From Euryarchaeota archaeon RBG_16_67_27 (GTDB taxonomy: Archaea > Thermoplasmatota > Thermoplasmata > RBG-16-68-12): 42,980 nucleotides of DNA. The position numbers and the translations under genes were made by a program. Of this stretch, positions 8,221 to 36,989 are shown piece by piece. The notes under the pieces were generated by a model. The model did not search any database. It worked only from the letters and a program-made list of their open reading frames with translations, and was not told the DNA's origin. Positions within the stretch are counted from its first letter, which is position 1; the number at the start of each line of letters is the position of its first letter. The stretch lies in assembly GCA_001800745.1 (NCBI GenBank), contig MGVZ01000047.1:1-42980 (forward strand), read 5' to 3'.

Positions 8221-8221
8221 G

Positions 8222-11924: not shown

Positions 11925-11925
11925 G

Positions 11926-12228
11926 TCACCACCTCAGGAACCGGACCTTGTCGAGCTCGATCGTGCCGTGGGTCTGGTAGATGGACAGGAACACGGCGAG
12001 GCCAACGGCGGCCTCCGCGGCCGCGACGGCGATCGCGAGGAGCGCGAAGACGCCCCCGGCGGGGTCGCCTTTGTACGCGCTGAACGCGACGAAGTTCAGG
12101 ACGGCCGCGTTGAGGATGATCTCGATCGACATGAGGACGATGATCCCGTTCTTTCGCGCGAGGATCCCGTAGAGGCCAATCGCGAGGAGGAGGGACGAGA
12201 GGATGAGCTCATACTCGAGCGGGATCAC
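11926..12228 (-). CDS. nuoK: complex I subunit K
   Basis: 100 aa from GTG at 12228 (GTGA overlap with upstream gene): IPLEYELILSSLLLAIGLYGILARKNGIIVLMSIEIILNAAVLNFVAF. The track's longer ORF (to 12405) is N-terminally over-extended. Confidence 0.9.
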   Translation of the reverse strand: MIPLEYELILSSLLLAIGLYGILARKNGIIVLMSIEIILNAAVLNFVAFSAYKGDPAGGVFALLAIAVAAAEAAVGLAVFLSIYQTHGTIELDKVRFLRW

Positions 12229-12485
12229 GGGCCCACCTTCCCGGGCTCGTCCATCTTGGAGAGGTAGATCCCGCCGATCATCGCGCTCCCGAGGAGCAGG
12301 GCGATCAGGATCACGGCGATCGGGAACGAGTCGAAGAGAGCGTTCGCGATCCCCTGGTCGGAGACCGGATCGTACGCGGGGATCTCCGTCGGGTCCGAGG
12401 GCCACGGCACGTTGACGAAGGACAGGGCCATCACGAGGAAGAGCGGCGTGACGGCGGCGAGGGCGAGGATCCCGCGGCGGTCCAT
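12225..12485 (-). CDS. nuoJ2: complex I subunit J, C-terminal half (split NuoJ)
   Basis: 86 aa with 2 TM segments, FDSFPIAVILIALLLGSAMIGGIYLSK; position directly before nuoK. Confidence 0.8.
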   Translation of the reverse strand: MDRRGILALAAVTPLFLVMALSFVNVPWPSDPTEIPAYDPVSDQGIANALFDSFPIAVILIALLLGSAMIGGIYLSKMDEPGKVGP

Positions 12486-12760
12486 CAGGTCCCCTCCTCC
12501 GTCGACGGTTCGTCCATGATCTTCGTGCGGGTGAGCATGAGGCCGAAGACGAACAGGATGGGCACCGTGCCCGCGTAGACGAGGATCTGGATCAGGAAGA
12601 TGAACTCCGAGCCGAACAGCAGGTAGATCCCGCCGATCGTGACGAGGGTCATCGCGAGCCAGAACGCCGCGCGGACGAGCCGCTTGTTCGTGACGACGAG
12701 GATCGAGCCGACGACCTCGAGGACGCTCAGGACGAGGAACGCGACGAGCTCCCAGTCCAC
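12485..12760 (-). CDS. nuoJ1: complex I subunit J, N-terminal half (split NuoJ)
   Basis: 91 aa; VRAAFWLAMTLVTIGGIYLLFGSEFIFLIQILVYAGTVPILFVFGLMLT is NuoJ-typical; ATGA overlap with nuoJ2. Confidence 0.88.
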   Translation of the reverse strand: MDWELVAFLVLSVLEVVGSILVVTNKRLVRAAFWLAMTLVTIGGIYLLFGSEFIFLIQILVYAGTVPILFVFGLMLTRTKIMDEPSTEEGT

Positions 12761-12767
12761 GGCCGTC

Positions 12768-13997
12768 TCACCACCCCACGAGGCTCGCCCCGGCAGCGAG
12801 GAGGATCGCGAGCAGGGAGAGCGGGATGAGGCGCTTCCACCCGAGCTGGAGGATCTGGTCGATCCGGATCCTCGGGACGGACCAGGAGATCCAGATGAAC
12901 ACCACGCTGAGGAGGTACACCCGGAGCATGAACCAGACCTCCTCGGGGATGATCGGCACGGGGATGCCCGCGACCTGGACGACGGTGAACACGGGGCCCG
13001 TCCAGCCGCCGAGGTACAGGATCGAGATGAGGCCCGCGCCCGCGATCATCCGGAGCCACTTGAACCCGAACAGGAGCCCGAACCGCATCCCGCTGTACTC
13101 CGTCGTCCAGCCCTCGACGAGCTCCGCCTCCGCCTCCGGGATGTCGAACGGGATCCGCTCCATCTCCGCCATCATCGCGACCGCGAACACGACGGCGCCG
13201 AGCGCCTGCGGGCCGAAGAGGTTCCACGCGGGGATCGCGAGAGGGCCCAGGGTCACCAGGGTCCGCTCCTGCTGCGCGACGATCTCGTACACGTCGAGGG
13301 AACCCGTCGTGAAGACGAGGGCGATCACGCACAGGATCAGGGGGATCTCGTACGCCATGAGCTGGGCCGCTGCCCGCATGCCGCCGACGAGGGTGTACTT
13401 GTTGTTCGCGGACCAGCCCGCGATGAGGATCCCGAACGGGGCGATGGAGAACGCGGCGAGGATGAACAGGAGGCTCAGGTCGGGCTTCGCGACGACGAAG
13501 CCGCTGCTCCAGGGGAGCGCGACGAAGATCATGAGGGTGGACGAGGCGATGAGCACGGGGGCCATGTGGAACATCGCGGAGTCCGCGCCGCGGGGGGTGA
13601 GGTTCTCCTTCTGGAGGAGCTTCATGCCGTCGGCGACGTTCTGCAGGTAGCCCCAGCCCTTGTGCGTGGGGCGGTCCTTCCGGTTGAAGGGCCAGATCGG
13701 CAGGGACCAGATGGAGACCATGATGCCGTACCGGTCCTGGAGCCGGCTGTAGAACTTCCGCTCGACCCACATCATGGTAAGCAGGTTGATCAGCACGGCC
13801 CAGAGGAGCATGACCGTCATCACGACGAGCCATGTGACCGCGCTGACCACGGGGTCGCTCGCGAGCCAGTTCCCCAGGTCCTTGAGGGGCGGGATCACGG
13901 CGCCGAGCGCGAGGAGGATCTGCTGGACGACCCAGAGGATCGCGCCCGTGAGGACCTTGCACGTCGCGAACAGGTCGGGCACGAGGGGCTGGCTCAC
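12768..13997 (-). CDS. nuoH: complex I subunit H
   Basis: GTG start at 13997 overlaps nuoD stop; VERKFYSRLQDRYG, AAQLMAYEIPLILC, MAEMERIPFDIPEAEAELVEGWTTEYSGMRFGLLF, WISWSVPRIRIDQ. Confidence 0.94.
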   Translation of the reverse strand: MSQPLVPDLFATCKVLTGAILWVVQQILLALGAVIPPLKDLGNWLASDPVVSAVTWLVVMTVMLLWAVLINLLTMMWVERKFYSRLQDRYGIMVSIWSLPIWPFNRKDRPTHKGWGYLQNVADGMKLLQKENLTPRGADSAMFHMAPVLIASSTLMIFVALPWSSGFVVAKPDLSLLFILAAFSIAPFGILIAGWSANNKYTLVGGMRAAAQLMAYEIPLILCVIALVFTTGSLDVYEIVAQQERTLVTLGPLAIPAWNLFGPQALGAVVFAVAMMAEMERIPFDIPEAEAELVEGWTTEYSGMRFGLLFGFKWLRMIAGAGLISILYLGGWTGPVFTVVQVAGIPVPIIPEEVWFMLRVYLLSVVFIWISWSVPRIRIDQILQLGWKRLIPLSLLAILLAAGASLVGW

Positions 13998-15085
13998 TTG
14001 TCCATCTCCCCCACGCAGACGTCGATCGACCCGAGGATCGCGACGAGGTCCGCAAGCTTGTTCCCCCGGAGCATGAGCGGCGTGGCCGCCATCGAACAGA
14101 AGATCGGGCTCCGAATCTTCACGCGGTACGGACGGTCGTCGCCGTCGCCGAGGATGTAGAAGAGCGCCTCGCCGCGGGAGTCCTCCGTGCGCGCGAAGCC
14201 GTCCCCCTCCGCGCGACGCGGCTCCTTCGTCCGGTACGCGCCCGACGTCGGCATCTTCTCGAGCACCTGGAGGATGATGTCGCACGACGTGCGCATCTCG
14301 TTGAACCGGCACACGAACCGGGCGTACGAGTCGCCCGCACTGGACCCCTTCCAGACCTGGGCCTCGAAGTCGAGCTCGTCGTACGTCTCGTAGGGGTCGA
14401 GCCGCCTCAGGTCGACGTTCACGCCGCACGCGCGGAGGTTCGGACCCGTCACGCCCCAGTTGATCGCGTCCTCCGCGGAGATCCGTCCGACGCCGAGGGT
14501 CCGAAGGTGGAAGATCTTCGAGTCGTGGAGGAGCTTCTCGTACTCGTCGAGCTTCCCCTCGAAGTGCGTGATCACCCGGCGGCACATCCCGTCGAAGTTC
14601 TCCGGCAGATCGTTCCGGACGCCGCCGATCCGCGGGTAGTTCTGGTTCATCCGCGCGCCCGTGAGGAGCTGGAGAAGGTCGAGCCAGAGCTCCCGCTCCC
14701 GAAGGGCCCAGAGGAGCGCCGTGAGGAGGCCGAGGTCAGGCCCGTACGCGGCGAGCCACATCAGGTGGCTCGCGACCCGCTGGATCTCGAGGGCGAGCAC
14801 GCGGATCCACTGCCCGCGCACGGGGACCTCGAGGCCCATCATCTTCTCCGCGGCGAGGCAGTACGCGTGGGACCAGGTGAGGGACGACACGTAGCAGAGC
14901 CGGTCCGTGAGCACGACGTTCTTCTGGAACTCGCGCACCTCCATGATCTTCTCGTACCCGCGGTGGAGGTACCCGATCTCCGGCTTCGCATCCGTGATCG
15001 TCTCGCCGTCGATCTTCACCTTCATGTTCCAGAGCCCGTGGGTCATGGGGTGCTGCGGCCCCATGTTGATCCAGAACCCGGGCAC
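13994..15085 (-). CDS. nuoD: complex I 49-kDa-type subunit D
   Basis: 363 aa; INMGPQHPMTHGLWNMKVKIDGETITDAKPEIGYLHRGYEKIME, C-terminal ILGSIDVCVGEMDK. No NiFe-ligand CxxC motifs. Confidence 0.95.
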   Translation of the reverse strand: MPGFWINMGPQHPMTHGLWNMKVKIDGETITDAKPEIGYLHRGYEKIMEVREFQKNVVLTDRLCYVSSLTWSHAYCLAAEKMMGLEVPVRGQWIRVLALEIQRVASHLMWLAAYGPDLGLLTALLWALRERELWLDLLQLLTGARMNQNYPRIGGVRNDLPENFDGMCRRVITHFEGKLDEYEKLLHDSKIFHLRTLGVGRISAEDAINWGVTGPNLRACGVNVDLRRLDPYETYDELDFEAQVWKGSSAGDSYARFVCRFNEMRTSCDIILQVLEKMPTSGAYRTKEPRRAEGDGFARTEDSRGEALFYILGDGDDRPYRVKIRSPIFCSMAATPLMLRGNKLADLVAILGSIDVCVGEMDK

Positions 15086-15616
15086 TCACTTCCCTCCCTT
15101 CAGCTTCCGCCGGCTGATGTACTGGCGGTCGACCTCCTGGGGGAAGTCCTTTCGCAGGGGATGGAACTTGAAGTCCGCGGGCAGGAGGATCCGCTCGAGG
15201 TTCGGGTGGCCTTCGTACACGATCCCCATGAGGTCCCACGCCTCGCGCTCGTGGTAGTTCGCCGCATTCCAGAGGACGCACACGCTCGCGACCTTCGGGT
15301 CATCCTTCGGGATCCGGGCGTGGAGCTGGACCGTCACCCCGTTGTAGTAGTTCATCATGTGATAGACGCTCTCGAACCGGTCCGGCCACTCGACCGCGCT
15401 CACGCACGAGAGCTGCTCGAAGCCGAGAGCCTCCTTGAGATGGCGGCACACGTCCACGAGGTCCGCGCGGTCGATCATGACCTGCACGACGCGGGGGCGC
15501 GGGATCCCCGCCCGGACGACCTTCCCGCCGAAGCGGGACCGGACCTGGGCGAGGACCTCTTCCGCGGCCCCCTCCACGGGGCGGCCGCTCAGGACCGGGG
15601 CCGCGGCGCCGCTCAA
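15086..15616 (-). CDS. nuoC: complex I 30-kDa-type subunit C
   Basis: HEREAWDLMGIVYEGHPNLERILLPADFKFHPLRKDFP; TTG start at 15616 overlapping nuoA stop (TTGA) is the likely start. The track ORF extends further upstream into nuoA. Confidence 0.88.
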   Translation of the reverse strand: MSGAAAPVLSGRPVEGAAEEVLAQVRSRFGGKVVRAGIPRPRVVQVMIDRADLVDVCRHLKEALGFEQLSCVSAVEWPDRFESVYHMMNYYNGVTVQLHARIPKDDPKVASVCVLWNAANYHEREAWDLMGIVYEGHPNLERILLPADFKFHPLRKDFPQEVDRQYISRRKLKGGK

Positions 15617-15981
15617 AGGTGGATGACCTCCTCCTTCTTCAGCGCGTACTGGGTGGCGACGAACATGATCGCCAGGAACAGGAAGATCGAGTACTTCGCC
15701 ACCCCGGAGGAGCCGGACAGGTCGCCCCAGGCGAAAGCCCAGAGGAGGAGGAAGATCGCGGCCACGTCGAAAACGAGGAAGATGAGAGCGAACATGTAGT
15801 ACTGGAAGTGGAACTGGATCTGCGCCTCGCCCTCCGGGAGCTCGCCGCACTCGTACACGAGGTCCTTGAGCGGGGTCGGGTGGTCGGGCCGGAACAGGCG
15901 GGTCAGGAAGAACGTGAGCGCCGGGAACACGAGGGCGAGGATGGCGAAAATCGCGATTGGCCCGTAGGACTCCAGAGCCAT
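15613..15981 (-). CDS. nuoA: complex I subunit A
   Basis: MALESYGPIAIFAILALVFPALTFFL...YECGELPEGEAQIQFHFQYYMFALIFLVFDVAAIFLLLWA. Start chosen relative to the TATA box at 16006-16015. Confidence 0.92.
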   Translation of the reverse strand: MALESYGPIAIFAILALVFPALTFFLTRLFRPDHPTPLKDLVYECGELPEGEAQIQFHFQYYMFALIFLVFDVAAIFLLLWAFAWGDLSGSSGVAKYSIFLFLAIMFVATQYALKKEEVIHL

Positions 15982-16005
15982 TCGAGCGCTCGGAAAAATG
16001 GGCAT

Positions 16006-16015
16006 CCTATTAAAC
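16006..16015 (-). promoter_or_regulatory. TATA box for nuo operon (leaderless-type spacing)
   Basis: Minus-strand GTTTAATAGG about 25-30 nt before ATG at 15981. Confidence 0.45.
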
Positions 16016-16108
16016 CTTTGGCGGAGACGCGACACGTACTCCACAGGGAGAGAACGAGGCGCGGACCGCACCCGCGCGGACGGCCGCCCCGGGACGGGAA
16101 ACCCAACG

Positions 16109-19655: not shown

Positions 19656-21086
19656 ATGGGCCTCCTCAGGGACTGGACCTTTGTGGAGGAGAGGACGCGG
19701 ATCCCCGCGCTGTCCGAGATCGTCCGCGAGGCGCTCGTCCGCGCCCTGTTCTGCCGGGACGACCGCGTCCTCCCGCGGGAGGTCATCGCCGTCCTGTCGC
19801 GGCCGCCCGCGGTGACCGTGAAGGTCCACGACGACGGCGAGATCCGCAAGCTCGTCGCGTTCGCGAACGGGGAGGAGACGTCCGCGAACCTCGGGTTCTC
19901 CGCGGAGGACTACCACTACTTCCGGAAGCAGCTCAGCGTCGGTCGCGCGACGGAGATCGGGTTCGCGCCGCGGCCGAAGACCCTCCTCACGTACGACTGG
20001 ATGATCCCCGAGCCCCGCGGGATCCTCCTCGACTTCTCCGCGTACGCAGGGATCGAGATCCCCGACCGGGGCGAACGGGCCGTGGCCCAGGTCGGAGCGA
20101 CGTGGAAGGCCGCGTACGACGCGGCGCTCGCGTCCGGCCACATCCTGCCGTTCGTGCCCGCGGTGCCCCTCGACTTCGCAATCGGCGACGGGATCTGGGG
20201 GGACGCCCCCTTCGTCGGGTACGACGCGGACTTCGCCTCCTGCGTCCTCGCCCTCCGGACGATCTCCGCGTACGGCCACCGCACCCAGGTGGGCTTCCAG
20301 GACGTGTCGAACGAAGGGACGGGGTACGATCTCCTGCACCTGATCCTCCCGCACGCGGCGGAGTTCTTCATCCCCGTCGCCGTGGCCGTGCGGCTCCTCC
20401 CTCGTCCCGCGGCACGCAAGACGCTGACGTACCGGTTCGACGACCCGGGCAAGCTCGGGCTCGCCCTGGACCGGCTCACCCGCTCAGGCCGCTCCGCGTG
20501 GTGGGCGAACCTCACGGACGCGGGCGCGTCCGCCCTCCTGTGGCCCGGCACGGCCCCTGAGCCGTTCACGCTCCAGGTCGCGGTGTGCGGCACGGAGGCG
20601 GCCCTCGCAGGAAGGGAAAAGGCGCTCGACGCGCTCCTCGCCGGGTTCAAGGCGAAGGCCGCAGACGTCCCGAACCCCTACGACGTGCCGGAGGCCGCGT
20701 ACCGGAAGACCGCGGACCGCATCGGGCGCGCCCTGTTCGTCGGAGAGGTCCGTCTGCCCTCGCGTGCCGTGCCGGACCTCCACGGGAAACTCACCGCGCT
20801 CGCCCAGCAGGCGGGGACGAAGGTCCACCTCTTCGCCGCACTCCGGGGGACGGGCACGGCGTCCGCGTTCCCCGCATTCGAGGCGCAGAAGGACCGCACC
20901 CGTACGTACGACCTCTCCAAGGGCGTCGACCGCGTCGCGGGGACGATCCCGGGCGCCCTATTCGCGTCCCGGCTCGCGCATCTCTGGCGGGAGGACGAGG
21001 AATACGTCCGACGGGTCCGTCTCCTCCGGGCCCTGAAGCTCGAGATCGATGCGGCCCACGTCGTCCAGCCGCTCGCGGCGGTCTGA
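19656..21086 (+). CDS. FAD-linked-oxidase-like paralogue with degenerate FAD-binding motifs
   Basis: 476 aa immediately downstream. Overall PCMH/GlcE-like layout (GATWKAAYDAALASGHILPFVPAVPLDFAIGDGIWGD...EGTGYDLLHLILPHAAEFFIPVAVAVRLLPRP) but no RGGGT-type loop. Confidence 0.65.
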   Translation: MGLLRDWTFVEERTRIPALSEIVREALVRALFCRDDRVLPREVIAVLSRPPAVTVKVHDDGEIRKLVAFANGEETSANLGFSAEDYHYFRKQLSVGRATEIGFAPRPKTLLTYDWMIPEPRGILLDFSAYAGIEIPDRGERAVAQVGATWKAAYDAALASGHILPFVPAVPLDFAIGDGIWGDAPFVGYDADFASCVLALRTISAYGHRTQVGFQDVSNEGTGYDLLHLILPHAAEFFIPVAVAVRLLPRPAARKTLTYRFDDPGKLGLALDRLTRSGRSAWWANLTDAGASALLWPGTAPEPFTLQVAVCGTEAALAGREKALDALLAGFKAKAADVPNPYDVPEAAYRKTADRIGRALFVGEVRLPSRAVPDLHGKLTALAQQAGTKVHLFAALRGTGTASAFPAFEAQKDRTRTYDLSKGVDRVAGTIPGALFASRLAHLWREDEEYVRRVRLLRALKLEIDAAHVVQPLAAV

Positions 21087-21707: not shown

Positions 21708-22031
21708 TCACATCTGGGGCGCACCGCACGCGGGGCAGATCGCCTGCCCCGGCGCCAGGACGGTCAGGCACGCGATGCAGCGATCCGTGCGGATCTTGAC
21801 GGGAAACATGGAGACGAAGATCCCCAGCGGGATGAACACGAGGGCGAGCGCGTAGTTCGCGGTCACGATCCCCTCGAGCCCGATCGCGACGAGGAACACC
21901 CCCGCAATCTTCATGATCACGATCAGCCGCTGGACCTTCGGCAGGTTCTTGATCGTCGCGATCTCCTGCCGGTACGTCATGCGCGGGGCCTTGCGCGCTT
22001 TGCGGACGGTCTCCGTCGCGGGCGCGGTCAT
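21708..22031 (-). CDS. two-TM membrane protein with C-terminal zinc ribbon
   Basis: RLIVIMKIAGVFLVAIGLEGIVTANYALALVFIPLGIFVSMFPV then CIACLTVLAPGQAICPACGA (CxxC...CxxC). Adjacent to the ferredoxin gene. Confidence 0.75.
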   Translation of the reverse strand: MTAPATETVRKARKAPRMTYRQEIATIKNLPKVQRLIVIMKIAGVFLVAIGLEGIVTANYALALVFIPLGIFVSMFPVKIRTDRCIACLTVLAPGQAICPACGAPQM

Positions 22032-22517
22032 TCAGGCCCCCTCGGGTCGTGCCGCGGGCGCGGCCGGCGGCGGCGCGGGCTTCGCCAAGGGCGCGGCGGG
22101 CGGGGTCGTCGAGACGAGCTTCCCGTCCCTCATCTCAAAACCGTGCTTCGGGAGCATCGTGATCGCGTCGACGGGGCATACGATCGCGCACTTCTCGCAG
22201 CCCACGCAGTTGTCGTACACGATCACCGCCTTCCGCGAGGTGTAGGAGAAGTCCGGGAGGGCGAACTTCCGGTCCGCCATCGCGATCGCCTCGAACGCAC
22301 AGTTGTCGAAGCAGTGCGTGCAGCCCATGCACACGGCCTCGTCGACCTCCGCGACCGTCCCCCGGCCACGGATGAACTCCTGCGTCCGGCCCCGGTAGAA
22401 CGGCTTGTAGCGGTCCTTCGCAAGCTGCAGGTTCGCCTGGCGGATGCCGCGGTAGTACTCGACGACGGGGTCCAGGGGAGGAGCGTCGGCCGGCACCGCG
22501 CCGACGGGCGTCGCCAT
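22032..22517 (-). CDS. 2x[4Fe-4S] ferredoxin-type protein
   Basis: CMGCTHCFDNCAFEAI and CVGCEKCAIVCPVDAI; Pro/Ala-rich C-terminal tail. ATG at 22517 overlaps the upstream stop (ATGA). Confidence 0.9.
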   Translation of the reverse strand: MATPVGAVPADAPPLDPVVEYYRGIRQANLQLAKDRYKPFYRGRTQEFIRGRGTVAEVDEAVCMGCTHCFDNCAFEAIAMADRKFALPDFSYTSRKAVIVYDNCVGCEKCAIVCPVDAITMLPKHGFEMRDGKLVSTTPPAAPLAKPAPPPAAPAARPEGA

Positions 22518-23482
22518 CAGCCGCCTCCCTTCCGCCCCGGCGGCGGGGGCTGCGTCCGCTTCGGGTCCACGTTGCCCCCGGTCGGGTAGTCGCCGGGCAG
22601 GCTCTCCGCGAGGAACTGGGTGATGTCCATCACGCGGTACCGGAACCGCTCCTCCTCGGGCCGCCACTTGTTCTCGTGGTGGAGGCAGCCGAAGTGGGTG
22701 AGGCACTTCGGGCACGCGGTCAGGAGGACGTCTGCGTCGACCTCCGCGGCCTCGTCCATCCGCATCCGCGTGAGGCCCTTCGTCTTGTCGTTGCAGTACA
22801 TCATCTGCGCGACTCCACAGCACTGCGCGTCCGCGCGGAAGGTCTTGAGCTCGACGAGTTCCGCGTTGTCCACCCGCTTGATCAGCTCCCGGGGCTCCTC
22901 GTAGACGGGGTCGACGGGCATCTGCCGGCACGAGCGGCACGGGTCCTGGTACGCGACGCGGATTCGCTTCGCGGATTCCCCCCGCGGCGGGATGCGGAGG
23001 CCGCGCTCGTAGAGGATCTGTGTGATGTGCACGACCCTCACGCCGTCGAGCTTGTAGTCGAGCTTGAACGTCCGGTAGCCCTCCGCACACGACGTGACGA
23101 GGGTCTTCACGCCGAGCATCTTGATGATCTTCGTGTTGTAGTCGCGCATCTTCCGGAAGACGTCGACCTTCCCCTGCCACAGCTGGTCGTGGCCGCAGCA
23201 CTTCATGAAGGAGCGGTCGAGGATCATCGGCTCGATCCCGACGGCCCGGAGGAGCTTGATCGAGGAGTCGAAGATGATCCCGTGGTTCGTGTCCCCGTAG
23301 TTCGTGTGGGAGAACTGCATCTCCTGGTCGTAGTAGTCCACGCACCCCGGGTAGTATGCGTACTCCGACGCGTGGGCGACCTTGATCTCCGGGACCGTGG
23401 TGTCGTCCGCCTCCGCGTCCAGGAGCCGGAAGAGGACGGGATGCGGGATCGTCCGGCCGGGACCGTACTCCGTGTCCATCAT
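22517..23482 (-). CDS. HdrB-like protein with two CCG (cysteine-rich) domains
   Basis: AYYPGCVDYYDQEM...RSFMKCCGHDQLWQG and VAYQDPCRSCRQMP...RADAQCCGVAQMMYC...LLTACPKCLTHF. Confidence 0.9.
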   Translation of the reverse strand: MMDTEYGPGRTIPHPVLFRLLDAEADDTTVPEIKVAHASEYAYYPGCVDYYDQEMQFSHTNYGDTNHGIIFDSSIKLLRAVGIEPMILDRSFMKCCGHDQLWQGKVDVFRKMRDYNTKIIKMLGVKTLVTSCAEGYRTFKLDYKLDGVRVVHITQILYERGLRIPPRGESAKRIRVAYQDPCRSCRQMPVDPVYEEPRELIKRVDNAELVELKTFRADAQCCGVAQMMYCNDKTKGLTRMRMDEAAEVDADVLLTACPKCLTHFGCLHHENKWRPEEERFRYRVMDITQFLAESLPGDYPTGGNVDPKRTQPPPPGRKGGG

Positions 23483-24798
23483 TCGGGCTCACCGCCGTCC
23501 GCCGCGATCCGGCCCGCGCTCTTCGCCCTCTCCTCGAGGATGTAGTCGCTGTACTTGATGTCGAGCGGGCAGACCGCGCTGCACGCGTCGCACGCGAGGC
23601 ACGTCCAAAGCGGCACGCCGTCGTGCTGCTTCTTGAACGTGTTGTACACGAGGTTCAGGCCGCCGCGGGCGTCGTCCTCGACCTTGGTCACCGGGCACAC
23701 CGTGTGGCACTTGCCGCACTGGTAGCACTCGTTGAGGAGGTACTCGTACGTGCTGTACGGCCGCCGGAGGCCGAACCATGCGGTGAGCACGACGAACGCC
23801 GGAAGGAACAGGAGGGTGTTCATGTTCGGGTACAGGACGTACAGGACCCAAACCATCGTGTCGCCTCCCGTCGCGTCGTACCACGCGAACAGACCGAGGA
23901 ACCCCGCGAGGCCGGCGGCCCCGGTCAGGAGGACGGCCTTCCGGGCCGTCGCCTCGGGCAGCAGGACCACGGCGAGCGCGGTCACCCCTGCGGTCCCGCA
24001 GAGGACCGCGAGGAACAGGGAGAGCGGCACGAGGTGCGGCTGGCTGTAGAGGGGCAGGCTGCCGGGCTGAAGGAGCAGGAGGAGCGCGTGCAGGATGACG
24101 ATCAGGAATCCCGCGCCGGAGAGGGGCACGATCCAGCTGCGCATCGGGCGGAAGCCCAGCCGCCGCAGGCCGACGTAGGTCGCGAGCCCGACGAGGATCG
24201 GCGGGACGAGGAAGAACCACTTCATCGTGTCGTCCGGGATCAGCGGGAGGACCCTGCGGACGTCCGGGCTCGGGTCGATGTCGGGCGTGGACCAGCGCTC
24301 CGCGACGACCTCGCGGATCGAGTAGAGGGACGCGGTGAAGATCGAGACGATCCCCGCGAGGCCCACGGCGGACCGGACGGGCGCCTTCGCGGGGCGCGCC
24401 TCGCGACCCCGGTCAAGGAACGGGAGCAGGATCAGGGCGATGATCGGGATCCCGCTGAGGAGGTCCCCCCAGAGCTGCGGGCTGAACCGGACGGGACCGA
24501 GGGAGAACTGCGGGAAAATGTCCGCGACCTTGAGGAGGCCCCAGGAGAAGAGCAGGTACCAGTCCGGGACGATGAGCTCGGACACCTGGGGACTCCGCGC
24601 GGGGCCGAGGAACGGGGTCACGAACGCGGAGAGGAAGAACATGAGCGCGACGAGGAGGAAGATCACGACGAGGTCCCGCGTGGCCTCCTGGGGCCAGAGC
24701 GGGATCCCGGGCTGGTGGTCCGTCCGCGCGGGGCCGTACTGCCGGGTGAACCCGGGCCGGTCCTCGAACACCCGCTCCCGCACCTTCTCGAGTTCCAT
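23479..24798 (-). CDS. cytochrome b C-terminal (subunit IV-like) domain fused to extra TM helices and a C-terminal HdrC-like 2x[4Fe-4S] domain
   Basis: From ATG 24798: SELIVPDWYLLFSWGLLKVADIFPQFSLGPVRFSPQLWGDLL (Qo-site PDWY); about 8 hydrophobic segments; then CYQCGKCHTVCPVTKV and CLACDACSAVCPLDI. Confidence 0.88.
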   Translation of the reverse strand: MELEKVRERVFEDRPGFTRQYGPARTDHQPGIPLWPQEATRDLVVIFLLVALMFFLSAFVTPFLGPARSPQVSELIVPDWYLLFSWGLLKVADIFPQFSLGPVRFSPQLWGDLLSGIPIIALILLPFLDRGREARPAKAPVRSAVGLAGIVSIFTASLYSIREVVAERWSTPDIDPSPDVRRVLPLIPDDTMKWFFLVPPILVGLATYVGLRRLGFRPMRSWIVPLSGAGFLIVILHALLLLLQPGSLPLYSQPHLVPLSLFLAVLCGTAGVTALAVVLLPEATARKAVLLTGAAGLAGFLGLFAWYDATGGDTMVWVLYVLYPNMNTLLFLPAFVVLTAWFGLRRPYSTYEYLLNECYQCGKCHTVCPVTKVEDDARGGLNLVYNTFKKQHDGVPLWTCLACDACSAVCPLDIKYSDYILEERAKSAGRIAADGGEPE

Positions 24799-24806
24799 CG
24801 TGCACC

Positions 24807-25577
24807 TCAGTGGGGCTCCGCGACCCCCTGGATCCAGACGAGGGCCATGTGGAGGATCATGAGCACCGTCGCGACTAGGGGCAGGATGAAGACGTGGAGC
24901 CAGTACATCCGGAGGATGTAGATCCCCGACAGCGTGCCGATGTCCCCCCACAGCAGGGTCGCGGCCGCGTCTCCGATGAACGGGGTCGCCCGCGTCATCT
25001 CGATCCCGATGTTCGCCGCGCCCTCGCTCAGGTTGTTCCCGGGCAGGAGGTAGCCGGAGTACCCGAAGAGGATCGTGAGCAGGAGGAGGACGACCCCGAG
25101 GAGCCAGTTCAGCTCCCGCGGCTTCTTGTACGCCCCCGTGAAGTACACGCGACACATGTGAAGGAACACCGCGGCGACCATGATGTGCGCCGCCCAGTGG
25201 TGCATGCCGCGCACGATGAATCCGAACGGCACGTCGTTCATGATGTACAGCATCGACTGCCACGCCTTGTTCGTCACGTCGTCCTCAGGCCCCAGGAGCT
25301 GGTACGTGCCGTCGGGCACGTAAAAGAAGCCGAGGATGATCCCGGTGATCGTGAGGATGATGAACGCGACGAACGAGATCCCGCCGAGGCAGTACAGCGG
25401 GTACCAGTACCAGATCGTCTTCAGTTCGTACTTCTCCGCGTGGCTCCGCGGCATCTGGCGCTGGTCCGTCTCGATCGCCTTACGGGTGAGGTCCACCCAG
25501 GGCGTCGTGGGGAATCTGTCGCGGATCCAGCCGACGACGGTCCTCTTCCCTTCCTGCCGGAGCGAGCTTCCCGCCAT
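24807..25577 (-). CDS. cytochrome b N-terminal domain, b6-type
   Basis: WYWYPLYCLGGISFVAFIILTITGIILGFFY, RGMHHWAAHIMVAAVFLHMCRVYFTGAYKKPRELNWLLGV, GYSGYLLP, YWLHVFILPLVATVLMILHM. Heme His spacing 13 and 14 intervening residues. Confidence 0.92.
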   Translation of the reverse strand: MAGSSLRQEGKRTVVGWIRDRFPTTPWVDLTRKAIETDQRQMPRSHAEKYELKTIWYWYPLYCLGGISFVAFIILTITGIILGFFYVPDGTYQLLGPEDDVTNKAWQSMLYIMNDVPFGFIVRGMHHWAAHIMVAAVFLHMCRVYFTGAYKKPRELNWLLGVVLLLLTILFGYSGYLLPGNNLSEGAANIGIEMTRATPFIGDAAATLLWGDIGTLSGIYILRMYWLHVFILPLVATVLMILHMALVWIQGVAEPH

Positions 25578-25584
25578 GCTCCCC

Positions 25585-26376
25585 CTACCCACAGTAGACG
25601 TACCAGGCGGGGTCCGCCATGCCGCCGACGAGGTTGCCGCCTTCGACCTTGACCGCGATGATCGGGAGCGCTCGGTCCGCGGGGCCATGGGTGTGGAGCG
25701 CCCCGACGTACGTCGCGTTGTTCCGCGGGTTCACGTGCTGGACGAGGGTCATCGGCTCGTACTGCGAGCCATGGCATACGCAGTAGATGGGGTCCTCTCC
25801 GTACTTCTCGTATGTCGGCGTGGGAGCGATGTACCGCCGGTCCGGCGGCGGGTTGTCGACGACGTGCCATCCCGGATAGCAGCACAGGTGGACGCACCGG
25901 TCGAACGCGACGATGATCCGGACGCCCCGCGGCTGCCCCGTGTCCGGATCCACATCCGCGGTCGGGTCATCGTAGAAGAGCGAGAACCCCTCCGGCAGGC
26001 TGATGTCGTCCGGGGCCGCGAAGACGGTGTCGTCCCGCTTCACGCGGATCACGAGAACGGGGAACCCCGTGCCCGGCACGTGGGCGTCGTCCTGGAAGAG
26101 ACCGCGCCACACGCCCGTCGCGCCCTCCCACTCCTTGAAGTCGCCGACCTTCATGGGCGTGCCGACCTTCGAGTTCCACCACTGCGGGGTCGGGAATTTC
26201 GTGTAGAAGATCGTCTCGCGAATCTCGCCGGAGCGCTCGATCGGGGGCGGGACGAGCTGCCGCCCCGAGACGGCCCCGAGGGAGGCGAGCGTGCCGATTG
26301 CCCCGACGGTCATCCCGAGCTTGACCCACTCCCGACGGGTCCAGCCCCGGTTCCTCTCGCCCTCTTCCCAGCTCAT
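25585..26376 (-). CDS. Rieske [2Fe-2S] protein with twin-arginine-type N-terminus
   Basis: TRREWVKLGMTVGAIGTLASLG; CVHLCCYPGWH and YCVCHGSQYEP cluster-binding boxes. Confidence 0.92.
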   Translation of the reverse strand: MSWEEGERNRGWTRREWVKLGMTVGAIGTLASLGAVSGRQLVPPPIERSGEIRETIFYTKFPTPQWWNSKVGTPMKVGDFKEWEGATGVWRGLFQDDAHVPGTGFPVLVIRVKRDDTVFAAPDDISLPEGFSLFYDDPTADVDPDTGQPRGVRIIVAFDRCVHLCCYPGWHVVDNPPPDRRYIAPTPTYEKYGEDPIYCVCHGSQYEPMTLVQHVNPRNNATYVGALHTHGPADRALPIIAVKVEGGNLVGGMADPAWYVYCG

Positions 26377-26385
26377 CGATCTCCC

Positions 26386-26679
26386 TCAGCGGAACGTCCG
26401 CGGTGGAACAATCTTGGGCCTTCGGAGCTTGTGAATGAGCTCGTCCGGCATGAACTCTCTGCGATAAACGTCCGTCGCGACGGCCGCGAGGACGAAGACC
26501 ATGCCGAGGAAGAGCGCCATGTACGTGTCCGTGAGGCCGTCGGAGACGCCGGCGGACACCTGGAGCGCGAGGAGGATCGCGAGCGCGGTGAACCAGAGAA
26601 CACCCACGACGAGGCCGCCGATCGCGAGGGCGGCCATCGCGCTCCGGTGAGGCGGGTCCGTCCGGATGATCTCCGTCAC
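26386..26679 (-). CDS. small two-TM membrane protein of the cytochrome b operon
   Basis: 97 aa; ALAIGGLVVGVLWFTALAILLAL and YMALFLGMVFVLAAVATDVY. 4-bp overlap with upstream cupredoxin gene. Confidence 0.75.
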   Translation of the reverse strand: MTEIIRTDPPHRSAMAALAIGGLVVGVLWFTALAILLALQVSAGVSDGLTDTYMALFLGMVFVLAAVATDVYRREFMPDELIHKLRRPKIVPPRTFR

Positions 26680-27329
26680 GGGAGCCCCTTCCGCATGTGG
26701 TCCCGGTGGTCCCTGAACTTCGGGGTCGAGGACTTGATCACGAAGTAGCTCACGCCGATCCAGCCGATCATCGCCGCGATCCCGATCATCCCGATCCAGT
26801 ACGCGCGGATGAGGACGCCCTTGTCCGCAGGCCCTTCGTCGCCGCCCGTCGGCGCGCCCGCCAGGACGATCTCGCCGATCATTCCCGCGGCCTGCCCGCC
26901 GACGTCGATCCGGTGCGGGATGCAGTAGAACCGTATGCCGCGGGCGGACGCCTCTGGGGTGAACGAGACTGCCCCGTTCGTGACGTTCGTCATCGAGTTC
27001 ACGGTGAACTCGAGGAACGACCGGTTCCCCGGTCGGATGAACCCGCTGTCGACGAGGCCCCGGGAAGACCGGTCCTCGTTGTCGATCGTGAACGTGTGGA
27101 AGTTCAGCGGTTGCGTGTCGTTATTGATGAACGTGATGTTGAGGATGATTGGGACCTGCGGGATCGTGATTACGATGGGCACGAATACGGGGCCGTCCGC
27201 CCCCGTCGTGCCGACGACCTCGAGGGAGAGCTTCGGCACCGCGTTCTGGGCGGCCGCAGGAGGGAGGCCGGAAGGCGCAGCGAAAACGGTCAATATTCCT
27301 ATCGCTACGAAGAGTGCGATCCTCCTCAT
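26676..27329 (-). CDS. membrane-anchored cupredoxin (type-1 copper)
   Basis: N-terminal signal peptide; NFHTFTIDNED (His) and FYCIPHRIDVGGQAAGM (Cys, His, Met); C-terminal TM YWIGMIGIAAMIGWIGVSYFVI. Confidence 0.85.
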   Translation of the reverse strand: MRRIALFVAIGILTVFAAPSGLPPAAAQNAVPKLSLEVVGTTGADGPVFVPIVITIPQVPIILNITFINNDTQPLNFHTFTIDNEDRSSRGLVDSGFIRPGNRSFLEFTVNSMTNVTNGAVSFTPEASARGIRFYCIPHRIDVGGQAAGMIGEIVLAGAPTGGDEGPADKGVLIRAYWIGMIGIAAMIGWIGVSYFVIKSSTPKFRDHRDHMRKGLP

Positions 27330-27394: not shown

Positions 27395-27403
27395 CTATTT
27401 ATA
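27395..27403 (-). promoter_or_regulatory. TATA box for cupredoxin-Rieske-cytb-Hdr operon
   Basis: Minus-strand TATAAATAG about 66 nt upstream of ATG 27329. Confidence 0.5.
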
Positions 27404-32196: not shown

Positions 32197-34512
32197 GTGG
32201 CAGCGAGCGCGAGGACGGAGACGAAGGCGAAGGGCGTCGGGGCGATCACGCGCGTCGCGGGCCCCGTGGTGACGGCGACCGGCCTGATGCCGCGGATGTA
32301 CGACGTCATGCTCGTGGGCGCGGAGCAGCTCATGGGCGAGGTCATCCGGATCACCAGGGAGAAGTGCACGATCCAGGTGTACGAGGACACGTCCGGCGTG
32401 CGCCCGGGCGAGCCCGTCGTGGACACGGGACATCCGCTCACCGTCGAGCTGGGACCCGGCCTCCTCGGGAACATCTACGACGGGATCCAGCGGCCGCTTC
32501 CCGTCCTCCAGAAGGTCATGGGAGACTTCATCAAGCGCGGGGTGCAGGCACCGGGCCTGAGCAGGGAGAAGCTGTGGGACTTCGTGCCAAAGGTGAAGGA
32601 GGGCGCCACGGTCCAGGGCGGGTCCGTGCTCGGGACCGTCCAGGAGGCGAAGAACGTCGAGCATCGCGTCCTCGTGCCACCGAAGGTGAGCGGGAAGGTC
32701 GTCCGCGTCCGGAGCGGCAAGATGAAGGTCGACGAGGTTGCCGTCGAGCTCGACAACGGCCGCGCGCTCATGCTCAAGCAGGACTGGCCCGTGCGGAGGC
32801 CGCGGCCCGTCCTCGAGCGGCTCATGCCGACGGTCCCCCTGATCACGGGGCAGCGGGTCATGGACTTCCTGTTCCCGATCGCGAAGGGCGGGACCGCGGC
32901 GATACCAGGCGGGTTCGGAACGGGGAAATGCGTGGTCGGAGACACCCCGGTCTACCTGACAGATGGGGAGCGGCGACCGATTCGGGAGCTCTACGAGGCC
33001 GCCCGCGGCAGCTTCCCGGATGAGGGACGCGAACAATTCATCTTCCTCCGAGAACCGCTGAACGTCTGGACGTTCGACGGAGAAGGAATCCGTCCGGGGC
33101 GTGCGACCGCGATGTATCGAGGTCGGACGGCCCGGCTCACCGAATTGGTTCTCGGAAGCGGGAGACATGTCCGGCTCACTCCCGTCCACAGGTTGCTCCG
33201 GTCCGAGAATGGATTGCTTATGGACACCGCCGCGGAACAGCTGCAACCTGGAGATCTCATCGCAGTCCCGACATGCGTCCCCGCCCACACCGCCGCGCAA
33301 TCGCAATCGGTCGCTTCCGACGCCGTCCAGCAGGTGGAGCTGCCGGTGACAGCCGGGGTTGCCCTCGATCCCGTGAAGGAGGTCCGCACCTGGAGTGAAT
33401 CGACCGACGTCTACGACCTCACCGTCGAGGACACGCACAACTTCGTCGGCGGCGAGCTGCCAATGATTCTGCACAACACAGTTTCCGAGCAACAGCTCTC
33501 AAAGTGGTGTGACGCGCAGGTCGTCATCTACATTGGCTGCGGCGAGCGCGGCAACGAGATGACGGAGGTCCTGACGACGTTCCCGAAGCTCGAGGACCCG
33601 TACACCGGCGCGCCCCTCATGGAGCGGATGGCCCTGATCGCGAACACGAGCAACATGCCGGTCGCAGCACGGGAGGCGTCCGTCTACACGGGCATGACGC
33701 TCGCGGAGTACTACCGGGACATGGGCTACAACGTCGCCCTCATGGCCGACTCGACCTCCCGATGGGCCGAGGCGATGCGCGAGCTCTCGAGCCGCCTCGA
33801 GGAGATGCCCGGGGAGGAGGGCTTCCCCGCCCACCTCAGCGCCCGGCTCAGCGAGTTCTACGAGCGTGCAGGGCGCGCGAAGACCCTCAACGGTCTCGAG
33901 GGCTCCGTGTCCGTCGTCGGCGCGGTGTCGCCGAGCGGCGGCGATTTCTCCGAGCCCGTGACCCAGGGGACCCTGCGCATCGTCAAGGTGTTCTGGGCGC
34001 TGGACACCGCGCTCCGCGCGCGGCGTCACTTCCCCGCGATCAACTGGCTCACGTCGTACAGCCTGTACGTGCAGACCCTCGACGACTACTTCCGGACGAA
34101 AGTGAACGAGGAGTGGCCGAAGCTCCGGAAGTGGACGCAGCGGACGCTGCAGGAGGAAGCGGAGCTCGAGGAGATCGTCCGCCTCGTCGGCGCGGACGCG
34201 CTCCCGCCCGAGCAGCAGCTCACCCTCGAGGTGGCGCGGATGATCCGGGAGATCTTCCTCCAGCAGAACGCGTACCACCCCGTGGACACGTTCTGCCCGC
34301 CCGAACGGCAGTTCCGGCTCATCTCCGCGATCCACCGGTATGCGGACCTCGGCGCGAAGGCCGTCGCCCTCGATGTGCCGCTCAAGGATGTCGCGAGCCT
34401 GAAGTCCCGCGAGCTCCTCACCCGCGTGAAGTACGAGGAGAAGTTCGACGCAGAGCTCGAGAAGACCCTGGGCCAGATGGAGGACGAGTTCAAGCGACTG
34501 GAGGTGCGATGA
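32197..34512 (+). CDS. atpA: A-type ATP synthase catalytic subunit A, interrupted by an in-frame intein
   Basis: [32 protein letters not shown]|intein|[68 protein letters not shown]. Confidence 0.97.
32929..33477 (+). other. mini-intein (183 aa) in AtpA Walker A P-loop
   Basis: Starts [22 protein letters not shown] (block A), LTPVHRLL (block B TxxH), [23 protein letters not shown] (blocks F/G) then Thr+1. No LAGLIDADG motif seen. Confidence 0.95.
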
Positions 34513-36989
34513 TGGCGAAGGAATACCGCACGATCACGGAGGTCGCTGGGCCGCTGATCTTCGTCGAGAGGACGGAGCCCGTCGGGTACAACGAGCTCGT
34601 CGAGATCATGCTCCCGGACGGAGCACGGAGGCGGGGCCAGGTCCTCGACTCCTCGACGGACGTCGTCGTCGTCCAGGTCTTCGAGGGGACCGCGGGGATC
34701 GACCGTCAGGCGAGCGTGAAGTTCCTCGGGGAGACGATCAAGCTCTCCGTGTCGCGGGACATGCTCGGTCGCGTCCTCACGGGCTCGGGCGAGCCCGCGG
34801 ACGGCGGCCCGCCGATCGTCCCGGAGATGCGTCGCGAGATCACGGGCGCAGCGATCAACCCGTACTCCCGCGAGCACCCCGCGGAGTTCATCCAGACCGG
34901 GATCTCGACAATCGACGGGCTCAACACGCTCGTCCGCGGGCAGAAGCTCCCGCTCTTCTCCGGTGCGGGGCTGCCCCACAACGATGTCGCGCTCCAGATC
35001 GCGCGGCAGGCGAAGGTCCTCGGTTCGAAGGAGCCGTTCGGCGTCGTCTTCGCGGCGATGGGGATCACCCACGAGGAGGCCCGCGTGTTCATGAACGACT
35101 TCGAGCGCACGGGCGCCCTCAAGCGCGCGGTCCTGTTCCAGAACCTGGCAGACGACCCCGCGGTCGAGCGACTCATCACGCCTCGGATGGCGTTGACCGC
35201 CGCGGAGTTCCTCGCGTACGAGGTCGGCATGCACGTCCTCGTCATCCTGACGGACATGACGAACTACGCGGAGGCACTGCGGCAGATTGGCGCGGCGCGG
35301 GAGGAGGTGCCGGGTCGGCGCGGCTATCCGGGGTACATGTACAGCGTGGATGCAAGTCGAAACGTTGTTGTTCGAGATCCCAGAGGTTGGCTTCGTGTCG
35401 TTCCCATCGGCGAGTTGTTCCGAGAAATCTCTGCCACGGCTCCCGTGCGCAATTGGGGCGGCTTCGAGGAGCGGATTGATGTCGCAGGATGGAGTGCACT
35501 CAGTGTCACGAGAGGGGGCAAGAGCGTCTTCCGCCCCATCAGACAGATCGTCCGGCATCGCTACGGTGGCAAGCTAGTCAGGCTTCGGACCCGCCACGGT
35601 GAAACGATCGTGACACCGAACCACTCGGTCTTCACGATTCGCCGAGGAAGGATCGAACCGATCCAGGCAGCAGACATGGTTCCTGGGGCGTTCCTCGCGC
35701 ATGTCAACCGGGTGCCCGAGGTCGAGACAGCGCACCTAGATCCGAGGCTGTCAGCGCTCCTCGGCTACTACGTTTCCGAAGGACACGCAACCCGTTACTC
35801 AGGGGGAAAAAGACTCTGGTGGAACCACTACATCCGAATTGACAATAACGACCCGGCAATCATCGGCAGAATCGAGCAGGCATATCGGACCGTGTTCGGG
35901 GCGAAGCCTTCGATGTTCGTGTCCGACAAGAGGTCGGGCACGATCCGCACTTCTATCGGTGGGAGGCGGTATTACGACATGTTTGTCAAAGAAATGGGAT
36001 GTGGAACGCGCTCGGCGACCAAACGAATCCCGAGCCAAGTCCTGTCCGCGCAGCCTGCAGCGAAGCAGGCGTTTCTCAAGGCATACTACGAGGGAGATGG
36101 AAAGGCGACAGACCCGCGATACAGGATTACACAGTATGACATGGTTACAGTCAGCCCGGGTCTGCGCGATGACCTGACGATCCTTGCCAAGCAGATGATG
36201 CCGGAGCGTGTGCCGTCCATCTACAAATGGAAGGGAAGGAACGCATGGAAGGTGTACCTCTCGACCTACATCCGAGCTCCCTCGGTCGCGTTGAGCGACT
36301 CTTTTGCGGCGGAGGTGGCGAAAGTGGAGATGGTTGATTCGACGGAGGAGTTCGTCTACGACCTCTGTGTTGAGGGGACAAACAACTTTGTGGACGCCTG
36401 TGGTGGCGTAATCCTTCACAATACTGATCTCGCGACGCTCTACGAGCGCGCGGGCCGCATCCACGGCAGGCCCGGGTCCATCACTCAGATCCCGATCATG
36501 TCGATCCCGGACGATGACTGGACGCATCCGATCGCGGACCTGACCGGCTACATCACGGAGGGGCAGATCGCGGTGAACCGGGACCTCCACCGGAAGGGGA
36601 TCTACCCGCCCGTCGACCCGCTCCCGTCCCTGTCGAGACTCATGGACGCGGGGATCGGGAAGGGGCGCACGCGGGAGGACCACAAGCAGGTCTCCGACCA
36701 GCTCTACGCCGCGTACGCGGAGGGCAAGGACGCCCGCGGGCTCGTCTCGATCGTCGGGAAGGAGGCGCTGTCCGAGAGGGACCGGAAGATGCTCGACTTC
36801 GCGGACCGCTTCGAGCAGGAGTTCATCCGGCAGGGGCCCGAGGAGGACCGGACGATCGAGGAGACCCTCGAGATTGGCTGGAAGCTCCTCGCGACCGTCG
36901 ACGTCGCCTGGCTCACGAAGATCGACCGGAAGACCCTCGACGCGTACCACCCCGCGAACCGGGGGAAGGCGGTACAGGTGAGCGCATAG
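34509..36989 (+). CDS. atpB: A-type ATP synthase regulatory subunit B, interrupted by an in-frame intein
   Basis: [46 protein letters not shown]|intein|[25 protein letters not shown]. The track ORF 33762..36989 is over-extended at its 5' end. Confidence 0.97.
35343..36422 (+). other. full-length intein (360 aa) with LAGLIDADG endonuclease motifs in AtpB
   Basis: Ser1 start ([26 protein letters not shown]), VTPNHSVF (block B), [11 protein letters not shown] and [12 protein letters not shown] (dodecapeptide motifs), [23 protein letters not shown] then Thr+1. Confidence 0.95.

What the first reader, a model, noticed from the sequence alone, without database searches (positions are those of the whole stretch)
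21708..27329. Hybrid operon: cupredoxin + Rieske + cytochrome b6 + HdrC-fused cytochrome b half + HdrB-like CCG protein + ferredoxin
Seen: eight collinear minus-strand genes with mostly overlapping or near-adjacent starts and stops. The p-side half of a bc-type complex (membrane-anchored type-1 copper protein, Tat-type Rieske, split cyt b) is in one transcription unit with n-side modules of heterodisulfide-reductase type (HdrC-like dicluster domain, two-CCG HdrB-like protein) and a further dicluster ferredoxin. Known: Rieske/b complexes bifurcate quinol electrons at Qo; HdrB/HdrC-type modules move electrons between Fe-S chains and thiol/disulfide or flavin partners. Inference: one complex that couples a cytosolic Hdr-type redox reaction to the quinone pool and, via Rieske, to a periplasmic copper carrier. 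I do not recognise this as a described enzyme.
Basis: partly seen in the sequence, partly recalled or inferred. Interest (0 to 1): 0.87.

Follow-up and report, generated by a model that had tools for sequence, protein, structure and literature searches.

The report
Complex III with built-in Hdr module
In a large group of uncultured archaea, a respiratory complex related to mitochondrial complex III carries an extra iron-sulfur 'plug' on its inner side, and in many of their genomes the plug is fused into the complex's own membrane protein, so electrons from inside the cell could probably enter this proton-pumping machine directly, most likely from ferredoxin.

Summary
Confirmed. An eight-gene operon encodes a cupredoxin, a DUF7318 protein, a Tat-type Rieske protein, a b6-like cytochrome b, a subunit-IV-like half fused to an HdrC dicluster domain, an HdrB-like CCG protein, an RnfB-like ferredoxin and a small membrane protein. 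It is not unique to this assembly: gene order and fusion recur in 23 of 37 genomes of the order. CCG is the most conserved product. In other classes of the phylum the cytochrome b half, HdrC and CCG are one ORF of about 600-950 aa (24 of 29 loci read). That is strong evidence for one complex. The RnfB-like ferredoxin lies within 1.2 kb in 25 of those 29 loci (three misses are contig ends). Six related operons without HdrC/CCG also lack it. Module-bearing cytochromes b almost always have the Cys that binds heme c_i in b6f; the four complete module-free ones read do not. Best reading: the module is an n-side electron entry, probably for ferredoxin, near heme c_i/Qn. Direction and donor are inferred. 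Prior work: Diamond et al. 2022 (PMC9038741) noted hdrD-like and rnfB-like genes beside this complex III and suggested ferredoxin entry. In the papers searched I found no report of the fusion, its phylum-wide spread or the c_i link.

The parts
27396..27403 (-). archaeal TATA-box-like element (TATAAATA), putative operon promoter
   Evidence: read in the sequence; not tested
26676..27329 (-). membrane-anchored cupredoxin (217 aa), ligands H78/C136/H139/M150, C-terminal TM helix
   Evidence: invariant ligands in 9 homologs; no Pfam hit
26386..26679 (-). DUF7318 small two-helix membrane protein (97 aa)
   Evidence: Pfam PF24002 E 2.3e-9; conserved in order
25585..26376 (-). Rieske [2Fe-2S] protein (263 aa), Tat-type N-terminus (TRREWVK)
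   Evidence: CVHLCC ... CVCHGSQY boxes invariant in ligand residues; TIGR01416 E 8e-6
24807..25577 (-). cytochrome b6-like subunit (256 aa), heme ligands H126/H140/H228/H243, heme c_i-type Cys63 (YCLGG)
   Evidence: Pfam PF00033 E 1.4e-35; aligns to Cys35 of cyt b6 2zt9
23479..24798 (-). fusion: cytochrome b C-terminal half / subunit IV (Qo motif PDWY, residues 78-81), further TM helices, C-terminal HdrC-like 2x[4Fe-4S] domain (355-427)
   Evidence: Pfam PF00032 and Fer4_8; invariant Cys and PDWY; about 8 TM helices in a low-confidence model
22517..23482 (-). HdrB-like two-CCG protein (321 aa): C182/C221C222/C257xxC260 complete; C47/C95C96/C132 with Gly135 in place of the fifth Cys
   Evidence: PF02754 E 2e-22; fold match to HdrB 5odc_B
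22032..22517 (-). RnfB-like 2x[4Fe-4S] ferredoxin (161 aa) with Pro-rich tail
   Evidence: co-occurs with the module across the phylum
21708..22031 (-). small membrane protein with C-terminal zinc-ribbon-like CxxC pair (107 aa)
   Evidence: weak DZR match; conserved in the order and present in L190
18134..19654 (+). GlcD-like FAD protein (convergent neighbour, possible order-specific partner)
   Evidence: PF01565/PF02913; metal-site motif lost; order-specific
19656..21086 (+). second, degenerate GlcD/GlcE-like protein (possible order-specific partner)
   Evidence: weak PF01565; in the order, full-length orthologs are confined to the families that carry the fusion

Best explanation
The operon encodes one Rieske/cytochrome b complex with a hard-wired cytoplasmic electron entry. 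[quoted passage not shown] Menaquinol is then oxidised at Qo (PDWY), with one electron going to Rieske and the cupredoxin and one returning through b_L and b_H. Net: ferredoxin:cupredoxin oxidoreduction with Q-cycle proton translocation. Well supported here: the gene set, the fusions, conservation and co-occurrence. Inferred: cofactor occupancy, order of transfer, donor identity and direction.
For: (1) One complex: the cytochrome b half and HdrC share an ORF in 29/29 module loci read outside the window's class, and CCG is in the same ORF in 24/29; 125 of 380 sampled phylum genomes have the CCG ortholog. The bc-linked CCG is a clade (99/98) apart from soluble HdrD-like proteins. (2) Ferredoxin is the constant partner: within 1.2 kb of CCG in 25/29 module loci (three of four misses end with the contig) and in 0/6 sister operons without HdrC/CCG; it is typed RnfB/RsxB. 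(3) The cytochrome b has the b6f heme c_i cysteine; heme c_n is the postulated ferredoxin entry in b6f (PMC9342900). (4) In EtfD, CCG clusters pass electrons to HdrC-type clusters and a membrane heme (PMC13083937). (5) Diamond et al. proposed ferredoxin entry here (PMC9038741).
Against: No protein was tested. Direction cannot be read from sequence. Two f36 cytochromes b have Ser instead of the c_i Cys although they carry the module. One near-complete genome (G313, L187) has the fusion but no ferredoxin gene nearby. In its own order, complex I (no NuoEFG) is another possible ferredoxin oxidase. The predicted model of the fusion is poor (pLDDT 54), so cluster-to-heme distances are unknown.
Confidence: 0.5

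Rival explanations
1. Reverse direction: electrons of menaquinol oxidation are bifurcated at Qo, and the low-potential electron leaves via b_H/c_i -> HdrC -> CCG -> ferredoxin to make reduced ferredoxin for biosynthesis, as proposed for NAD(P)H in anammox Rieske/b complexes.
For: Anammox complexes with b6-like cytochrome b and n-side reductase are proposed to work this way (PMC12954380). The same gene set allows it. Rieske box CHGSQY keeps the residues of high-potential Rieske proteins in the window (residue rule from general knowledge).
Against: The window's operon has no n-side NAD(P)/flavin reductase gene. These aerobic heterotrophs should make reduced ferredoxin from 2-oxoacid oxidation and need to re-oxidise it (established physiology, not tested). 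In f36 and f47/f55 the box has Phe instead of Tyr.
Confidence: 0.17
2. The donor is a flavoprotein (an ETF, or in this order the adjacent GlcD1/GlcD2 pair): the split GlcF/EtfD-like module (HdrC + CCG) oxidises it and feeds quinone, like an ETF- or 2-hydroxyacid:quinone oxidoreductase built into complex III.
For: CCG plus dicluster is the Fe-S part of GlcF, TfrB and EtfD. In the order, full-length GlcD2 orthologs are confined to the three families with the fusion and absent in all 11 genomes of the families without it. A GlcD-CCG-Fer4 fusion protein lies near a module-free bc operon (L198).
Against: GlcD2 is absent from all 29 module loci outside the order. GlcD1 has lost the HxGDGN metal motif of 2-hydroxyacid dehydrogenases. 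Its genes are in a separate, convergent unit. No ETF gene was seen near.
Confidence: 0.18
3. Thiol/disulfide enzyme: the noncubane clusters reduce or oxidise a low-molecular-weight thiol couple, as in HdrDE.
For: Both CCG motifs are complete in f47, f55, f52 and f54; a glutamate-cysteine ligase-like gene lies near one locus (L186).
Against: Window-order proteins lack the Cys81-equivalent at site 1, and two f36 proteins lack one Cys of the CC pair. The GshA-like neighbour is not conserved.
Confidence: 0.1
4. No single complex: ordinary bc-type complex plus neighbouring soluble Hdr-type proteins that act elsewhere.
For: Related families have the p-side operon without the module.
Against: Fusion of the cytochrome b half with HdrC, and in many genomes with CCG, in one ORF across five families outside the window's class as well as three families of its order; clade-specific CCG.
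Confidence: 0.05

Closest known systems
Angelarchaeales 'complex III-like' locus (Diamond et al. 2022, PMC9038741)
   Same: [quoted passage not shown] ferredoxin entry already suggested.
   Different: In the passages read, no mention of the HdrC-cytochrome b fusion, its conservation, the CCG residue pattern, heme c_i, or the wider phylum.
Anammox Rieske/b complexes (Kuste4569-4574, Kustd1480-1485; PMC12954380)
   Same: b6-like cytochrome b with subunit IV, n-side Fe-S redox module, heme c_N discussed.
   Different: n-side module is an FAD/NAD(P) reductase, p-side has multiheme cytochromes c; here HdrC/CCG/ferredoxin and a cupredoxin.
Cytochrome b6f complex
   Same: Split cytochrome b, heme c_n cysteine, plastocyanin-like acceptor, postulated ferredoxin input at heme c_n.
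   Different: b6f has no permanent Hdr/ferredoxin subunits; has cytochrome f, absent here.
EtfD / ETF:menaquinone oxidoreductase (PDB 9ojn, PMC13083937) and HdrDE
   Same: CCG clusters -> dicluster domain -> membrane b heme -> quinone on the cytoplasmic side.
   Different: Membrane part there is a single-heme 5-TM domain without Rieske/Qo; here it is a bc-type cytochrome b. Glu134 replaces EtfD His583.
MGII cytochrome b/Rieske and orphan RnfB (Tully 2019, PMC6336850)
   Same: Same components reported separately in marine Thermoplasmatota.
   Different: Not linked there; our f47/f55 loci (probably the same group, an inference) show them in one locus with an HdrC-CCG fusion.

Membership tests
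Rieske/cytochrome b (bc1/b6f) complexes | Rieske 2Fe-2S ligand boxes and Tat-type anchor | tested here: met
Rieske/cytochrome b (bc1/b6f) complexes | four b-heme His ligands on two helices | tested here: met
   H126/H140/H228/H243 in all module loci
Rieske/cytochrome b (bc1/b6f) complexes | Qo motif PxWY in subunit IV half | tested here: met
   PDWY invariant
Cytochrome b6f | heme c_i/c_n Cys (Cys35 of b6) | tested here: met
   Cys63 aligned to Cys35; heme itself not testable
bc1 / b6f | cytochrome c1 or f subunit | tested here: not met
   no such gene in the operon; a cupredoxin is encoded instead
Heterodisulfide reductase HdrBC/HdrD | dicluster domain with two CxxCxxCxxxC motifs | tested here: met
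Heterodisulfide reductase HdrBC/HdrD | two complete five-Cys CCG sites with bridging Cys81 and Cys234 | tested here: not met
   site 2 complete, site 1 has Gly135 in the window's order; complete in f47/f55/f52/f54
Heterodisulfide reductase HdrDE/HdrABC | partner HdrE or HdrA | tested here: not met
   none in the operon
Heterodisulfide reductase | thiol/disulfide activity | not testable with these tools
   needs biochemistry
EtfD (ETF:menaquinone oxidoreductase) | His583-capped D2 cluster and 5-TM b-heme domain | tested here: not met
   Glu134 at that position; membrane part is bc-type
Glycolate oxidase GlcDEF type | flavoprotein with HxGDGN metal motif linked to the Fe-S module | tested here: not met
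   motif lost in GlcD1; GlcD2 absent from module loci outside the order
Rnf complex | RnfACDEG subunits with RnfB | not tested
   only the RnfB-like ferredoxin is in the operon; absence of RnfACDEG reported for MGII in PMC6336850

The most novel reading that the evidence does not exclude
A hard-wired ferredoxin-fed Q-cycle: one electron from ferredoxin (through CCG and HdrC) and one from heme b_H meet at heme c_i/Qn to make each menaquinol, so the complex works as a ferredoxin:cupredoxin proton pump. This is a permanent, genetically encoded form of the ferredoxin-quinone reductase activity long postulated for cytochrome b6f, used in respiration by a whole archaeal lineage.
Probability: 0.3. 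Interest if true: 0.9.

Novelty: new variant of a known kind. Interest (0 to 1): 0.74.

Why it matters
It would add a second electron entrance to complex III. It would also explain how aerobic archaea that make much reduced ferredoxin re-oxidise it, and give a place to the orphan 'RnfB' reported in marine Group II. Because the module is covalently joined to a cytochrome b whose partner subunit has a heme c_i cysteine, it offers a direct test of the old question whether ferredoxin can reduce quinone through heme c_n in b6f-type complexes.

Tried and rejected
A unique or chimeric assembly: rejected by conservation in many genomes. An Hdr cluster that merely sits next to bc genes: rejected by the one-ORF fusions. 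GlcD1/GlcD2 as universal donor: rejected, absent outside the order, kept as an order-specific rival. The AlphaFold model of the fusion was too poor for a fold search; the CCG model was moderate (pLDDT 61) and matched LutA/LutB and HdrB at E <= 0.001, with unrelated racemases also listed. Plasmid records: cytochrome b matches were to weakly similar bc operons, and the one haloarchaeal locus opened had no HdrC/CCG. Complex I: the window's nuo operon lacks nuoB and nuoI, so I considered the operon ferredoxin as a NuoI substitute; a NuoB homolog next to a NuoI-like polyferredoxin lies elsewhere in several genomes, which makes this unnecessary.

Full report
OBSERVATION. The window is G000:C47:1-42980 of an archaeal genome about 75% complete. 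Related loci carry record titles of Angelo-soil 'Euryarchaeota' MAGs (EA_*) and RBG_19FT_COMBO_69_17; I take the lineage to be Angelarchaeales or close to it (inference; compare PMC9038741). Eight minus-strand genes between 27329 and 21708 overlap or abut (gaps -4 to 9 bp) with coding-type third-position GC. Domains: cupredoxin, DUF7318, Rieske, cytochrome b6-like, cytochrome b C-half plus HdrC dicluster, CCG protein, RnfB-like ferredoxin, small Zn-ribbon-like membrane protein. Flanks: complex I operon, a molybdopterin protein, TatC, TatA, two GlcD-like genes and an Lrp regulator on one side, the A/V-type ATP synthase on the other.

CONSERVATION. The fusion protein is found at 44-70% identity in 14 aligned relatives from three families of the order and in 23 of 37 genomes of the order. 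The whole neighbourhood is syntenic. Mean identity to the window proteins is highest for CCG (87% in genus, 85% in family, 81% in f5, 62% in f4), above cytochrome b6 (79/71/69/62%) and far above Rieske (59/34/39%). The n-side module is thus under the strongest constraint. Genomes of families f2, f3 and f6 of the same order lack the fusion.

FUSIONS ELSEWHERE. A profile search of the phylum, followed by reading of loci, showed the same operon in other classes. In f47 and f55 the product is about 920-970 aa: cytochrome b half with PDWY, TM segments, HdrC, then two CCG motifs. In f52 it is 789 aa and in f54 about 606 aa. In f36 the HdrC-fused half is separate from CCG. Over 29 module loci read outside the window's class: cytochrome b half and HdrC in one ORF 29/29; HdrC and CCG in one ORF 24/29; RnfB-like ferredoxin within 1.2 kb in 25/29, where three of the four misses (L197, L216, L217) run into a contig end and one (L187) is a real absence nearby. 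The CCG ortholog is in 125 of 380 sampled phylum genomes, in families f1, f36, f47, f52, f54, f55. Six related operons (L191-L194, L196, L198) have the p-side genes but no HdrC, CCG or ferredoxin.

RESIDUES. Cytochrome b6-like: four heme His and, in the window's order, an invariant Cys63 in YCLGG that aligns with Cys35 of cytochrome b6, the heme c_n ligand. The Cys is in 14 of 16 module-bearing sequences; two f36 sequences have Ser; the four complete module-free sister sequences have Ser or Thr. PDWY is in all. CCG: site 2 is complete everywhere in the bc clade; site 1 has Gly in place of the Cys81-equivalent in the window's order but Cys in the other families; two f36 sequences have Ser for the second Cys of the CC pair; Glu134 stands at the EtfD His583 position throughout. 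Trees: bc-linked CCG form a clade (99/98) apart from soluble HdrD-like proteins; module-bearing cytochromes b group together (95/93) apart from L197, with the module-free operons as sister. Some joins involve long branches, so a single gain with loss, or two gains, remain open.

MECHANISM. Shown by sequence: gene set, fusions, conserved ligands, co-occurrence. Inferred: HdrC lies on the n-side (about 8 TM helices in the window protein, Arg-rich end after the last one; the model is poor). By homology to EtfD, electrons run CCG -> HdrC clusters -> membrane heme (PMC13083937). Heme c_n is the postulated ferredoxin entry in b6f (PMC9342900). The constant partner is the RnfB-like ferredoxin, so ferredoxin is the likeliest donor, as Diamond et al. 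already suggested. The net reaction would be ferredoxin:cupredoxin oxidoreduction with Q-cycle proton translocation. The reverse direction, as proposed for anammox complexes (PMC12954380), cannot be excluded from sequence.

NEIGHBOURING FLAVOPROTEINS. GlcD1/GlcD2 are convergent to the operon and, within the order, full-length GlcD2 occurs only in families with the fusion. GlcD1 resembles D-lactate dehydrogenase and LctD but lacks the HxGDGN motif. GlcD2 is not near module loci outside the order, so the pair may be a lineage-specific extra input at most.

NOVELTY. The hdrD-like and rnfB-like genes near complex III were noted in 2022, and MGII 'RnfB' and Rieske/cytochrome b in 2019. In the searched library I found no description of the cytochrome b-HdrC(-CCG) fusion, its phylum-wide spread, or its association with the heme c_i Cys; the library lacks many subscription papers. 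I class it as a new variant of the Rieske/cytochrome b complexes.

LIMITS. The quinone type (menaquinone) is assumed, not tested.

Noticed in passing
window 5107-16071 (-): Complex I operon has A, C, D, H, J, J, K, L, M, M, N but no nuoB or nuoI in place; in G000, G060, G199 and G044 a NuoB homolog next to a NuoI-like or polyferredoxin gene lies on another contig (L160-L163).
   Followed up: partly
window 32197-34512 and 33762-36989 (+): ATP synthase A and B subunit ORFs appear to carry intein-like insertions ending in HNT (GKC...HNT at the P-loop of subunit A).
   Followed up: no
L198:9308-12856 and L192:12001-15516: Near module-free bc operons lie about 1180 aa FAD_binding_4 proteins, one fused to CCG and 4Fe-4S domains, the other to a Fer2 domain.
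   Followed up: partly
L156:4103-6116 and L157:3602-5447: Two genomes of the window's genus (G083, G175) have a second, ordinary full-length cytochrome b plus Rieske pair without HdrC/CCG; the fourth b-heme His position aligns with Lys.
   Followed up: no
L151, L152, L153, L155: Families f2/f3 of the same order have b6-like cytochromes with YCLGG; in L151-L153 these sit next to multiheme c-type proteins (8-12 CxxCH); no Rieske motif was found near them.
   Followed up: no
L183-L198 cytochrome b, window H127 and H131: Two extra His near the first helix-B heme ligand (HHW..H): the first is in all module-bearing cytochromes b and the second in all but L197; both are absent from the four module-free ones (HFW..M).
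   Followed up: no
L187/L186 fused protein, about residues 190-520: A roughly 300 aa insert, apparently extracytoplasmic, lies between the cytochrome b half and HdrC in the f47/f55 fusions, without a Pfam match.
   Followed up: no
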